From the NCBI RefSeq assembly GCF_001443605.1, contig NZ_CP013118.1, positions 4,303,001-4,367,000 of the forward strand: a stretch of 64,000 bases of DNA. The letters are read 5' to 3'. The DNA comes from Salinivirga cyanobacteriivorans (GTDB taxonomy: Bacteria > Bacteroidota > Bacteroidia > Bacteroidales > Salinivirgaceae). The translations under genes were made by a program, and so were the position numbers. The notes beneath the pieces are model-generated. The model did not search any database. It saw only the letters and a list, made by a program, of their open reading frames with translations, and was not told where the DNA came from. This document shows, one piece after another, positions 12,091 to 20,480 of the stretch (positions within the stretch are counted from its first letter, which is position 1; each line of letters starts with the position of its first letter).

Positions 12091-14136
12091 ATGGCACAAA
12101 GAATATTTACAACAATCATATTGCTCACCATGGCCGGTATGCTTGCCGCCCAGAATGTACCATTCGACAAATCGTATTTTAAAGACCGCAAAAGTGAATT
12201 CCGCGATGCACGGAGCCATTACAACGATGGCGACGATTACTTTGACAATATGCAATACTATCTTGCATTGCAGAGTTACCTTAAGGCACACGATTTTAAC
12301 CCGGATAATGCCAGACTCAATTTTCAGATTGGTGTAAGTTATATGGCGTCGGTGCAGAGCTACAAATCCCTAAAATATTTTTTACGGGCACGTGAACTTG
12401 ATGCTGCAGTGAGCCGTGATATTATGTACTACATAGGCCGGGGGTACCACATGAACGGCCAGTACAAGAAAGCCCTCGAGGCCTATCGTGAATACAAAAA
12501 AGGACTGCTGCCCAACCAGGTCGAAGATATTGAATATACATCCAAACACATTAAAGAGTGCGAAACAGCCCTTGAACTGGTCGATAAGCCTGCACGGGCT
12601 TTTATCGATAATTTGAGGGATATCAATACCGGTTATACTGAACACAGCCCGGTGATAACAGCCGATGAATCGAAAATGATGTTCACTTCCACAAGAGAAG
12701 GTTCTGTAGGCGGCCGCATGGATGATTTCACCCAGGAATACGACGAAGATATTTACATTTCTTACAAAGTAAACGACCGATGGACCCGTCCGGTAAACGC
12801 AGGTGAACCGCTTAATTCTCATATGAACGACGCTACAGTAGGCCTTGCCTCAGACGGGCAATTGCTGCTCATTTACAATGGCCGTAAACGCAATGGCGAC
12901 ATTCAGTCGTCGATGCTTGAAGGTGATGAGTGGAGTTATCCCGATTGGTTGCCACGTAGTGTAAACAGTGGCGAAAAAGAAACCTCTGCCTCGTTGGCCA
13001 ATAATGACCAGGTGCTGTATTTTATCAGTGGTCGTGAAGGCGGATATGGTGGTAAAGATGTTTACGTAGTGCACAAAGACCGCCGCGGAAACTGGGGCGA
13101 TGCACGTAATCTTGGACCTGCCATCAATACCCAGTACGATGAAGAGAGTGTGTTTATGCACCCTGACGGCCGTACCCTTTATTTTAGCTCCAAAGGGCAC
13201 AATACCATTGGCGGTTTCGATATTTTCAGAGCCATACTTGGAGATGACGGCAAATGGGGTAAACCAGAAAATGTGGGTATGCCAATTAATACCCCGGATG
13301 ATGACCTTTCGCTTGTGCTCTCTGCAGATGGCCGGCATGGATATTTTTCCTCCACCCGAGAGGGAGGTAAGGGCCGGTATGATATCTATCAAATTACGTT
13401 CCTCGGACCCGAAAAACCACTCTATTTAAGTAACGAGGATCAATTGTTGGCCAGTTTCGAGAAATCTGTTAGCGACAACGTGCTCGAAAAATCAGTTGAA
13501 ATTAAAACCATTAGGCTTACTGTAGTAAAAGGTGTGGTAAAAGATGCCATTACCAATGAGCCCATAAAAGCCAATATTGAAGTGGTGGATAACGACAAGG
13601 ATGAGATTGTGTTTAACAATGTTTCGAATAGTAAAACCGGCCGATTCCTGGTTACCCTGCCTTCTGGTAAAAACTATGGGTTGGCTGTAAAGGCGGAAAA
13701 TTACCTGTTCCACTCAGAAAACTTTAATATACCCAAAGCTACGGCGTACCAGGAGATTGAGAAGGAGATCCTGTTGAATAATGTGAAAAAGGATGTGAAA
13801 ATAGTGCTGAAAAACGTCTTTTTCGATCAGGGTAAGGCTGTTTTAAGGCCCACTTCGTATCCTGAGTTGAACCGCCTGGCTAAGCTGCTGAAAGATGTGC
13901 CCACCCTTAAAATAGAGATTTCGGGACATACAGATAACACGGGAAGTGCCACTTTCAATCAAAAGTTGAGTGAAGACCGTGCCAAAGCCGTGGTCGAATA
14001 CATTAAGGCCCAGGAAATTTCAGCCGACCGGTTAACTTATGTAGGTTACGGTGAAACCCAGCCCATTGCCGACAACACGACCAAAGACGGCCGCCAGCAA
14101 AACCGCCGGGTAGAGTTTAAGGTACTCAGTAAATAA
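12091..14136 (+). CDS. PorE-like OmpA-family protein
   Basis: 681 residues from the ATG at 12091, chosen because it starts a good signal peptide (MAQRIFTTIILLTMAGMLAAQ). An in-frame ATG at 11998 would overlap the TPR gene by 86 bp. TPR helices lie at about 30-150, PD40 propeller repeats at about 180-430 (SREGGYGGKDVY, DGRTLYFSSKG), a carboxypeptidase-regulatory-like fold at about 475-560, and an OmpA C-terminal domain with ISGHTDNTGSATFNQKLSED at about 585-680. The order matches PorE, a peptidoglycan-tethered T9SS component. A role in T9SS is an inference from architecture and the T9SS-rich window. Confidence 0.9.
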   Translation: MAQRIFTTIILLTMAGMLAAQNVPFDKSYFKDRKSEFRDARSHYNDGDDYFDNMQYYLALQSYLKAHDFNPDNARLNFQIGVSYMASVQSYKSLKYFLRARELDAAVSRDIMYYIGRGYHMNGQYKKALEAYREYKKGLLPNQVEDIEYTSKHIKECETALELVDKPARAFIDNLRDINTGYTEHSPVITADESKMMFTSTREGSVGGRMDDFTQEYDEDIYISYKVNDRWTRPVNAGEPLNSHMNDATVGLASDGQLLLIYNGRKRNGDIQSSMLEGDEWSYPDWLPRSVNSGEKETSASLANNDQVLYFISGREGGYGGKDVYVVHKDRRGNWGDARNLGPAINTQYDEESVFMHPDGRTLYFSSKGHNTIGGFDIFRAILGDDGKWGKPENVGMPINTPDDDLSLVLSADGRHGYFSSTREGGKGRYDIYQITFLGPEKPLYLSNEDQLLASFEKSVSDNVLEKSVEIKTIRLTVVKGVVKDAITNEPIKANIEVVDNDKDEIVFNNVSNSKTGRFLVTLPSGKNYGLAVKAENYLFHSENFNIPKATAYQEIEKEILLNNVKKDVKIVLKNVFFDQGKAVLRPTSYPELNRLAKLLKDVPTLKIEISGHTDNTGSATFNQKLSEDRAKAVVEYIKAQEISADRLTYVGYGETQPIADNTTKDGRQQNRRVEFKVLSK

Positions 14137-17937: not shown

Positions 17938-18441
17938 ATGTATCATGTCATAACTGGCAACGGAAAAGGAAAAACCACTGCAGCTCTGGGTATGGCTTTG
18001 AGGGCAGCCGGATCAGGTATGCGTGTTTTTATTGCACAATTTGTGAAAGGCAAACCCTATGCCGAGCATCAAATACTGGAACAGGTGCCAGGTATTGATT
18101 TTGCACTTTTTGGCAGAAGGTGTTTTATACATAAAGCTCCTGAACGGGAAGATATTGAAGTGGCACAAAAAGGGTGGTTGCAAGTACAACAAATTGTGCA
18201 AAACAAAACCGTCGATTTGCTAATTCTCGATGAACTTCACATTGCTTTATACTATCAGTTGCTTGAAGAGAAAGAGGTAGCTGAGTTTATTGCCCAAAAT
18301 AAAAAAGATATTGAAATAGTTACAACAGGCCGCTATGCTCCGGATGGGCTCATTGACCTGGCAGATCTGGTATCGAACATAGAGGAGGTAAAACATTACT
18401 ACGAGCAAGGTGTGGAAGCCCGGAAAGGTATTGAATTTTAA
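17938..18441 (+). CDS. cobO: Cob(I)yrinic acid a,c-diamide adenosyltransferase
   Basis: CobO/BtuR-type ATP:corrinoid adenosyltransferase, which makes adenosylcobalamin. 167 residues with P-loop GNGKGKTTA (residues 7-15), AQFVKGKPYAEHQ, the LLILDELHIALYY Walker B-like segment and VTTGRYAPDGLIDLADLVS. Shorter than E. coli BtuR but normal for this family branch. No cobalamin-synthesis gene is adjacent, so a salvage role is likely. 6 bp separate it from the next gene. Confidence 0.9.
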   Translation: MYHVITGNGKGKTTAALGMALRAAGSGMRVFIAQFVKGKPYAEHQILEQVPGIDFALFGRRCFIHKAPEREDIEVAQKGWLQVQQIVQNKTVDLLILDELHIALYYQLLEEKEVAEFIAQNKKDIEIVTTGRYAPDGLIDLADLVSNIEEVKHYYEQGVEARKGIEF

Positions 18442-18865: not shown

Positions 18866-20359
18866 TTATAATTCTGCCATATTAGCTAAAGTTGCATTTG
18901 GATTTACGTACTCGTTTACCATTTTTGAACTGTTGGGGTGCTGCCAGTGAATTACGGTACTGTCTTGTTCAACAAAGTGCGATATTGCGGCTTTTGATGC
19001 ATCGGGATTCATTACAATTTGAATCTGATCGATCATAATGCCTTTTTTTAATAAAGTGTTTACTACATTAATAGCTGTATGTTTGTTTGGCGTAATAAGT
19101 TTAAAACGCAAAAGCTTCTTTTGTGCCCTGGTAATTTCCAGGTAGTTTATTCTGTTAAAAAGCTGGCTAAGCATATCTGTTCTTGTTTCGCCGTAGATTT
19201 TATCATATGGACTGATATGTGCCATATAGGCAAAGTTTTGTTTGAGCGATACAATCAACCCTGAGCAGGTAGATATACCATGGGTATACAATACCTCGCC
19301 ACTTTTACCGCGTTTAAATTCGTCGATATTTACATTTATGGCTTCACGCACAGGTCTATATTTAAGATAATCATGCTTTTGTTGTTCAATATACTTCAGC
19401 AGCATCACTTTGAGTGAATCAGGGTTTTTCAGATAAAAATTAGAGCGTGCTTCGGCCTCGTTAATTTTAGCTATTATGAGCCATTCATTATTCATAAAAG
19501 AAAATACTTCGAAAGCACTAATTACATCAAACCCCATGTAGTCGGTTACTTGTTTGTGCCCTTTGCCTAATGCAAATTTACTTTCAATATTGTTGCTTGC
19601 CAGCTTTTTCTGTAAAATGGTCGACTGGGGCTTAAATCGTGAATCAGTAAGCATGTAATGCGCCTTGTTTACAAGGATTACTTCCCCACTTTGTCCGAGG
19701 TGCTTATTTAATGAAAATATATGATTGATTTTACTGACGGAAAATTGCATCACGATCCAACCGAGAAATTTACCATTTTCGTAAAATGGCTCTATAAAAA
19801 AGGCAGACGGCTCACCTGATATTTAGTAAAACCTGAAATCCACAAGTGATTTTTTGATATCCGATTTCAACTTACGCGAAAGGGCTGTGTGTCTGAACTC
19901 AGGGGTAAATATATTTTGATGGTAATCAGCTTCTTTTTTTATCGTATAAAAGATATTACCCGAAGTATCAACCATCAGAATGTCATAAAACCTTTGATAT
20001 TTGTTTATATAGTGACGCCTGAAAGCCAATTCAAGTCTTTCTTTTTTAACCAGGGTTGATTTTGGTAAATTCGATTTATCTTCAATCGCCTCAAAAGCCT
20101 TTTGTGTCTTAAAAAAGCTTTTCACCAGATCATCCTGTACAACCTCACCGGCATTGCTCTGCGTATGCTGAAGGTAGTTGATGAGTTGCCGTTTTGTATT
20201 TTGAACTGTGGAATCAAGCGTGCTGTATGCATGGTCAAAAGCAGCTTCCATGCTAATTTTGGGGTTTTGTTTTTCAAAATTGCATTGCAATGATACGAGG
20301 GTAATGATAAAAATGGCAACCAGATTCTTTATCGTGGGTAAAATGGCAATGTGCTTCAT
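18866..20359 (-). pseudogene. Exported dCache sensor fused to CheD-like domain, split by in-frame TAA
   Basis: One frame of 497 positions from the ATG at 20357-20359 to the stop at 18866, broken only by TAA at 19823-19825 (codon 179). The N-terminus MKHIAILPTIKNLVAIF runs to LVSLQC, a signal or anchor with a poor lipobox. A dCache ligand-binding fold follows, with DILMVDTSGNIFY and, straight after the stop, ISGEPSAFFIEPFYENGKF, SGEVILVN and DSRF. The last third has a Thr-x5-Cys-x15-His arrangement in YTHGISTC...YMAHI like the CheD deamidase triad. The downstream part could restart at GTG 19753. No transmembrane helix separates the two domains. I read it as one gene with a nonsense change; readthrough or a base error are alternatives. 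Confidence 0.75.
19823..19825 (-). other. In-frame stop codon inside the dCache domain
   Basis: TAA between RFY and ISGEPSAFF. In related dCache domains the frame runs through here with a residue between the aromatic motif and the (S)GEP(A/S)AF motif. Both flanking stretches stay in the same frame with no other stop. Confidence 0.85.
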
Positions 20360-20480
20360 ATGCAAAAACTCTGAATGTTTTACATACAAAAATAAAGAAT
20401 CATATTTTTCGCAGACACGTGAAAATACCCTTTATAAAATAAAGATAATCAGGATAAAAGGCTCTTAATATGTTTGGTTC

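What the first reader, a model, noticed from the sequence alone, without database searches (positions are those of the whole stretch)
19823..19825. Single in-frame TAA splits an otherwise open 497-position dCache/CheD-like gene
Translating from 20359 to 18866 in one frame gives a continuous dCache domain broken only by this TAA between RFY and ISGEPSAFF, two adjacent parts of the same dCache fold. No other stop or indel is present, so the change is very recent, or tolerated by readthrough or by restart at GTG 19753, or a base error.
Basis: seen in the sequence. Interest (0 to 1): 0.65.

Follow-up and report, generated by a model that had tools for sequence, protein, structure and literature searches.

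The report
Recently broken exported sensor-like gene
One stop codon cuts in two a bacterium's gene for an exported sensor-like protein that related bacteria keep whole; this is an ordinary recent gene breakage or a base error, but the little-known protein family it belongs to is of some interest.

Summary
The minus-strand frame 20359-18866 has 498 codons and is open except for TAA at 19823-19825 and its terminal TAA. The stop falls inside one dCache domain. Four relatives hold the same gene whole and read Glu, Leu, Glu, Glu at that column; one is a same-genus genome with both flanking genes conserved. So the halves are not naturally separate genes, and the stop is derived. After the stop the window keeps 66 of 73 residues invariant in the other four, as well as before it (23 of 26), without frameshift: the lesion is recent or an error. 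Nothing found supports functional readthrough or restart. A 464-kb sample of the genome holds at least one more broken gene. Best reading: a fresh nonsense mutation in a dispensable gene; an assembly error cannot be excluded without reads. "CheD-like" rests on fold (top PDB match CheD, but from a low-confidence model with background-level Z) and on Thr/Cys/His spacing, not on sequence profiles. The unusual part is the family: lipoprotein-like dCache plus CheD-like proteins, beside chemoreceptor genes in two of four intact genomes.

The parts
18866..20359 (-). Whole interrupted gene: lipoprotein-like, dCache plus CheD-like domain; 498 codons including the internal and the terminal TAA
   Evidence: intact relatives
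19823..19825 (-). Single in-frame TAA (codon 179)
   Evidence: relatives have Glu, Leu, Glu, Glu at this column
19826..20359 (-). Upstream open part (178 codons): signal-like sequence and first half of the dCache domain; the only product expected under ordinary translation
20282..20359 (-). Lipoprotein-type signal sequence ending at Cys26; a Cys at this column is present in 5 of 5 family members. Lipobox judged by eye, no signal predictor was run
   Evidence: alignment
19472..20224 (-). dCache_1 domain (residues 46-296 of the read-through), cut by the stop
   Evidence: Pfam PF02743; the ortholog scores above the cut-off, 56.4 bits
18866..19753 (-). Downstream ORF from GTG (ATG at 19750): rest of the dCache and the CheD-like domain, no signal sequence seen; probably not translated
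18869..19345 (-). CheD-like C-terminal domain
   Evidence: low-confidence model of the G002 ortholog's domain: top PDB match 2f9z_C (CheD)
19217..19285 (-). Candidate catalytic triad: Thr359 (19283-19285), Cys365 (19265-19267), His381 (19217-19219), invariant in 5 of 5 members
   Evidence: CheD triad Thr21/Cys27/His44 seen in passages of PMC7022378

Best explanation
A single recent nonsense mutation interrupts a dispensable gene for an exported, probably lipid-anchored dCache plus CheD-like protein. As read, ribosomes would make a 178-residue fragment with the signal and half a dCache domain, which should not fold or function, so the gene is a fresh pseudogene in this strain. Shown: the stop, its place inside one domain, the intact relatives, and the lack of further decay. 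Inferred: the truncation, the loss of function, and that the change is real rather than a base error.
For: One internal stop and no other lesion. Four relatives carry the gene whole, one of them syntenic in the same genus. Residues invariant in the other four members are kept after the stop (66 of 73) as well as before it (23 of 26); leave-one-out values after the stop for the four intact relatives are 66/73, 66/69, 66/70 and 66/92, before it 23/28, 23/26, 23/23 and 23/34. The stop cuts one Pfam domain. No second copy was found in the genome. In the third genome of the genus, G001 (93% complete), the flanking genes lie about 0.6 kb apart with no trace of the gene between them, and no full-length match was found elsewhere in it, so it is not needed throughout the genus. 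Another gene in the sampled 464 kb is broken by TGA plus a frameshift and is open in both same-genus genomes, so such damage is part of this genome record's background.
Against: No reads and no second genome of the species were available, so a base error is not excluded; the second broken gene could equally be an assembly fault. Full conservation after the stop is also what a still functional gene, or a wrongly called base, would leave.
Confidence: 0.68

Rival explanations
1. Assembly or base-calling error: the real genome has a sense codon and the gene is whole.
For: No sign of decay after the stop; a second gene in the sample has a stop and a frameshift, as a somewhat error-prone assembly would give.
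Against: The lesion is a clean substitution-type change (no gap in the alignment), whereas long-read errors are mostly indels (recalled; how this genome was sequenced is not known to me). Of seven further candidate pairs read in 464 kb, one was a clear broken gene.
Confidence: 0.22
2. Tolerated readthrough: some full-length protein is still made through the TAA.
For: The downstream part is conserved. A survey infers that in-frame stops with readthrough are widespread in prokaryotes (PMC7918605, passages seen).
Against: TAA ends 148 of 208 long ORFs in the sample, and TAAA is the commonest stop context (62 of 208), so this is the genome's usual terminator. None of four relatives has the stop. 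The same survey holds many such events to be short-lived and calls TGA leaky. Both halves are in the same frame, so a single frameshift cannot rescue it.
Confidence: 0.06
3. Gene fission: the downstream part is translated on its own from GTG 19753 or ATG 19750.
For: A start codon pair lies 24 codons after the stop.
Against: The product would begin inside the dCache domain, lack a signal sequence and leave the CheD-like domain in the cytoplasm, unlike all four relatives. No clear Shine-Dalgarno sequence precedes it by eye, though that is weak evidence, since Bacteroidota use such sites little (recalled).
Confidence: 0.03

Closest known systems
Nonsense-mutation pseudogenes of bacteria
   Same: One in-frame stop, an intact ortholog at the same locus in a same-genus genome, no second copy found
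   Different: No further decay yet, so the change is very young or an error
CheD receptor glutamine deamidase (Thermotoga maritima, PDB 2f9z chain C)
   Same: Predicted fold of the C-terminal domain (Foldseek E 0.011, probability 0.99, TM 0.55; VIA Z 6.8) and Thr-x5-Cys spacing with a His 16 residues further on (17 in CheD)
   Different: No sequence-profile match; carries a signal-like sequence and a dCache domain, whereas CheD is a small cytoplasmic protein (localisation recalled). This genome has a separate true CheD
NTAN1 and YfiH/YlmD, CNF1/YfiH-like cysteine hydrolases
   Same: Same fold group, next best matches, tied with CheD within one Z unit
   Different: Different substrates; 10-13% identity in the top rows
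dCache chemoreceptors (MCPs)
   Same: The ligand-binding domain type is shared (for example G001 L005 and Vibrio L093)
   Different: No HAMP or MCP signalling part found by Pfam: the dCache is followed by a CheD-like domain instead

Membership tests
Nonsense-interrupted pseudogene | In-frame stop absent from orthologs | tested here: met
   0 of 4 relatives have it
Nonsense-interrupted pseudogene | Stop removes a large, conserved part of the protein | tested here: met
   Cuts the dCache domain and removes the whole C-terminal domain
Nonsense-interrupted pseudogene | Loss of constraint after the stop | tested here: not met
   66 of 73 invariant residues kept; so if a pseudogene, a very young one
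Nonsense-interrupted pseudogene | No functional product made | not testable with these tools
   Needs proteomics or a reporter
CheD (PF03975) | Sequence-profile match | tested here: not met
   No PF03975 match to either full-length protein (E up to 1 and 10) or to the two C-terminal domains (E up to 10); hhalign of the 5-member domain against 16 CheD proteins: probability 0.4%, less than the dCache control's 1.0%
CheD (PF03975) | CheD fold | tested here: inconclusive
   CheD is the top match, but the model has mean pLDDT 52 and Z 6.8 lies in the range the tool gives for background
CheD (PF03975) | Thr/Cys/His triad | tested here: met
   Invariant in 5 of 5 members, spacing 6 and 16 against 6 and 17
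CheD (PF03975) | Glutamine deamidase activity on receptors | not testable with these tools
   Needs an assay
dCache_1 (PF02743) | Profile match over the curated cut-off | tested here: inconclusive
   Window 42 bits read through (cut-off 45); G002 ortholog 56.4 bits

The most novel reading that the evidence does not exclude
The intact relatives form an apparently undescribed family of exported, lipid-anchored enzymes in which a dCache ligand sensor is fused to a CheD-like cysteine deamidase, acting outside the cytoplasm, perhaps on the outer face of chemoreceptors encoded next door. The window holds a strain in which this gene has just been lost.
Probability: 0.3. Interest if true: 0.55.

Novelty: new member of a known kind. 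Interest (0 to 1): 0.2.

Why it matters
The stop itself matters little: it is one more recently broken gene, or a base error, in a bacterial genome. If the family is what it looks like, CheD-type receptor modification, known inside the cell, would have an extracytoplasmic, ligand-linked counterpart in a few Bacteroidota. That could be tested directly on the intact proteins.

Tried and rejected
Sequence-profile links of the C-terminal domain: Pfam and NCBIfam gave no CheD match. Profile-profile comparison with 16 CheD proteins gave none: probability 0.4%, and the dCache part, run as a control, gave 1.0%. The PDB profile search gave 7 sequences at E 1 or better, best E 0.07 (IpaD, profile positions 194-248), taken as chance. 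The full-length structure model is poor (mean pLDDT 43) and was not used.

Wider occurrence: genome contigs with the single protein found nothing, with the two-member alignment one locus. Order-level search: 7 of 393 genomes at E 0.01 or better, of which 4 are clear (own, G324, G286, G161). Three at E about 0.006-0.007 (G298, G267, G017) lie in UvrC-like, coiled-coil and protease-like ORFs by eye, and I dropped them. Phylum-level search: 2 of 395, own and one partial match (G782, E 8.7e-4, 74-residue frame with a TAG), not pursued. Viral contigs: no relative. Plasmids: 32 records, none covering 80% of the query; of the five listed, the best reached residue 381, past the candidate Cys, so I looked at it: it is an ordinary dCache-HAMP chemoreceptor. 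The other 27 were not listed.

Readthrough as general recoding: rejected because TAA ends most of the sampled long ORFs. tRNA scan of the 20 sampled stretches: 2 tRNAs, no suppressor, but this is only about 8% of the genome.

Other stop-separated ORF pairs: 620 pairs examined in 464 kb, 37 candidates including this one. Of the other 36 I read seven in protein: six look like separate neighbouring genes or noise, and one, in L074, is a broken gene. The remaining 29 were not read, so the count of broken genes is a lower bound. Frameshift-only damage was not searched for.

A first codon-usage scan of the window alone was too weak to list even this case. The order of gain or loss in the genus could not be set: the three genomes are about equally distant at the flanking genes (66-67% and 58-62%).

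Full report
Observation. On the minus strand, 20359 to 18866 is one frame of 498 codons with an internal TAA at 19825-19823 and a terminal TAA. The upstream part has 178 codons. The downstream part is open for 318 codons from the stop, with its first standard start at GTG 19753, followed directly by ATG 19750. The window lies in a genome held as one 4.81-Mb contig, in which a single copy of the gene was found.

One gene, not two. In the read-through protein Pfam dCache_1 spans the stop (residues 46-296, E 1e-10, 42 bits, cut-off 45); the upstream part alone gives E 0.012 and the downstream ORF from GTG 19753 nothing. Of 60 genomes searched, 17 (the window's own included) have a match. One besides the own genome has the whole gene: G002, same genus, 47% over residues 13-470, E 4.1e-130, open frame. 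The other matches listed fall within residues 26-324, the dCache part; of these I looked at one protein, a chemoreceptor of G001. There the gene stands between homologs of the same flanking genes, the long acyl-activating/acyltransferase gene on one side and the release-factor-like gene on the other (gene names by eye). Three more whole copies come from an order-level search with the C-terminal domain: G324, G286 and G161. All four relatives are single open frames, of 487-518 codons.

The stop is derived and young. At the column of the stop the four relatives have Glu, Leu, Glu, Glu. The alignment needs no frameshift. Of residues invariant in the other four members, the window keeps 23 of 26 before the stop and 66 of 73 after it. 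The leave-one-out values after the stop are 66 of 73 (L039), 66 of 69 (L033), 66 of 70 (L034) and 66 of 92 (L035). So no decay is visible, and the change is recent, or an error, or tolerated.

Which of these. Against a working stop: TAA ends 148 of 208 mechanical ORFs of at least 250 codons in 464 kb of this genome, and TAAA, the context here, is the commonest (62). None of the four relatives has the stop. The halves share a frame, so a single programmed frameshift cannot help. A restart product would lack the signal sequence and begin inside the dCache. For ordinary breakage: the gene is not needed throughout the genus, since in G001 (93% complete) the flanking genes lie about 0.6 kb apart with no trace of it (best tblastn E 0.39, chance), and a ParD-like antitoxin frame is found there instead. 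Whether G001 lost it or the others gained it is open. The genome has other damage: in L074 (G000:C1:4245488-4248022) a gene open in both same-genus genomes carries a TGA and, further on, a frameshift. Whether such lesions are mutations or assembly errors cannot be settled here. A survey of in-frame stops in prokaryotes argues that they are common and that many are short-lived (PMC7918605, passages seen).

What the gene encodes. All five members start with a signal-like stretch ending in a Cys (column conserved in 5 of 5), as in lipoproteins; no signal predictor was run. A dCache domain follows, then a C-terminal domain of about 160 residues. The latter has no profile match. A model of the G002 ortholog's domain, with the window's as second row, is of low confidence (mean pLDDT 52, pTM 0.50), yet its first PDB match is CheD of Thermotoga maritima (2f9z_C, Foldseek E 0.011, probability 0.99, TM 0.55; VIA Z 6.8, rmsd 4.0 over 129 residues). 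NTAN1 and YfiH/YlmD-type proteins, of the same fold group, fill ranks 2 to 10 (Z 5.5-6.2). No match passed Foldseek E 0.001, and the tool warns that best Z values of 7 to 8 are common without real kinship, so the fold evidence is suggestive only. Independently of the model, Thr, Cys and His are invariant in 5 of 5 members with spacings 6 and 16; CheD has Thr21, Cys27, His44 and NTAN1 Ser69, Cys75, His92 (PMC7022378, passages seen). The window's genome also has an ordinary CheD elsewhere, so this is not its only CheD-type protein.

Context of the family. In G324 the gene lies beside hemerythrin, response-regulator, chemoreceptor and, one gene on, CheW genes; in G286 beside CheW and chemoreceptor genes (Pfam). 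In the window, in G002 and on the 5.1-kb G161 contig no chemotaxis gene is adjacent, by eye. The family is rare: 4 clear cases in 393 genomes of the order, own genome included, plus G002, and no further clear case among 395 of the phylum. Three literature searches showed nothing on a dCache-CheD or exported CheD-like protein in their listings (7 of 7, 12 of 14 and 15 of 18 papers listed, none of these opened); only open-licence papers are held.

Verdict. The most likely cause is a nonsense mutation (0.68), then a base error (0.22); readthrough (0.06) and fission (0.03) are unlikely. Interest is low for the stop and moderate for the family.

Noticed in passing
L074:5488-8830 (G000:C1, about 4245488-4248830): A second broken gene in the same genome: in-frame TGA at L074:6220 and a frameshift near L074:8000; open in both same-genus genomes.
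   Followed up: partly
L092:1371-1562 (G001): At the site where the same-genus genome G001 lacks this gene there is a ParD-like antitoxin frame.
   Followed up: partly
window 17938-18441: A cobalamin adenosyltransferase-like ORF (by eye) lies between the comB-like gene (by eye) and the release-factor-like gene in the window but not in G002, where those two ORFs overlap slightly.
   Followed up: no
window 20387-20394, strand -: TATTTTTG, 28 bases before the start codon, fits the -7 promoter element of Bacteroidota (TAnnTTTG, recalled); so the broken gene may still have its promoter.
   Followed up: no
L070:11051-15379, stop at 13406: A long ORF resembling a glycoside hydrolase (by eye) directly follows an amylase-like ORF in the same frame, with its first ATG 123 codons after the stop; perhaps a non-ATG start.
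   Followed up: no
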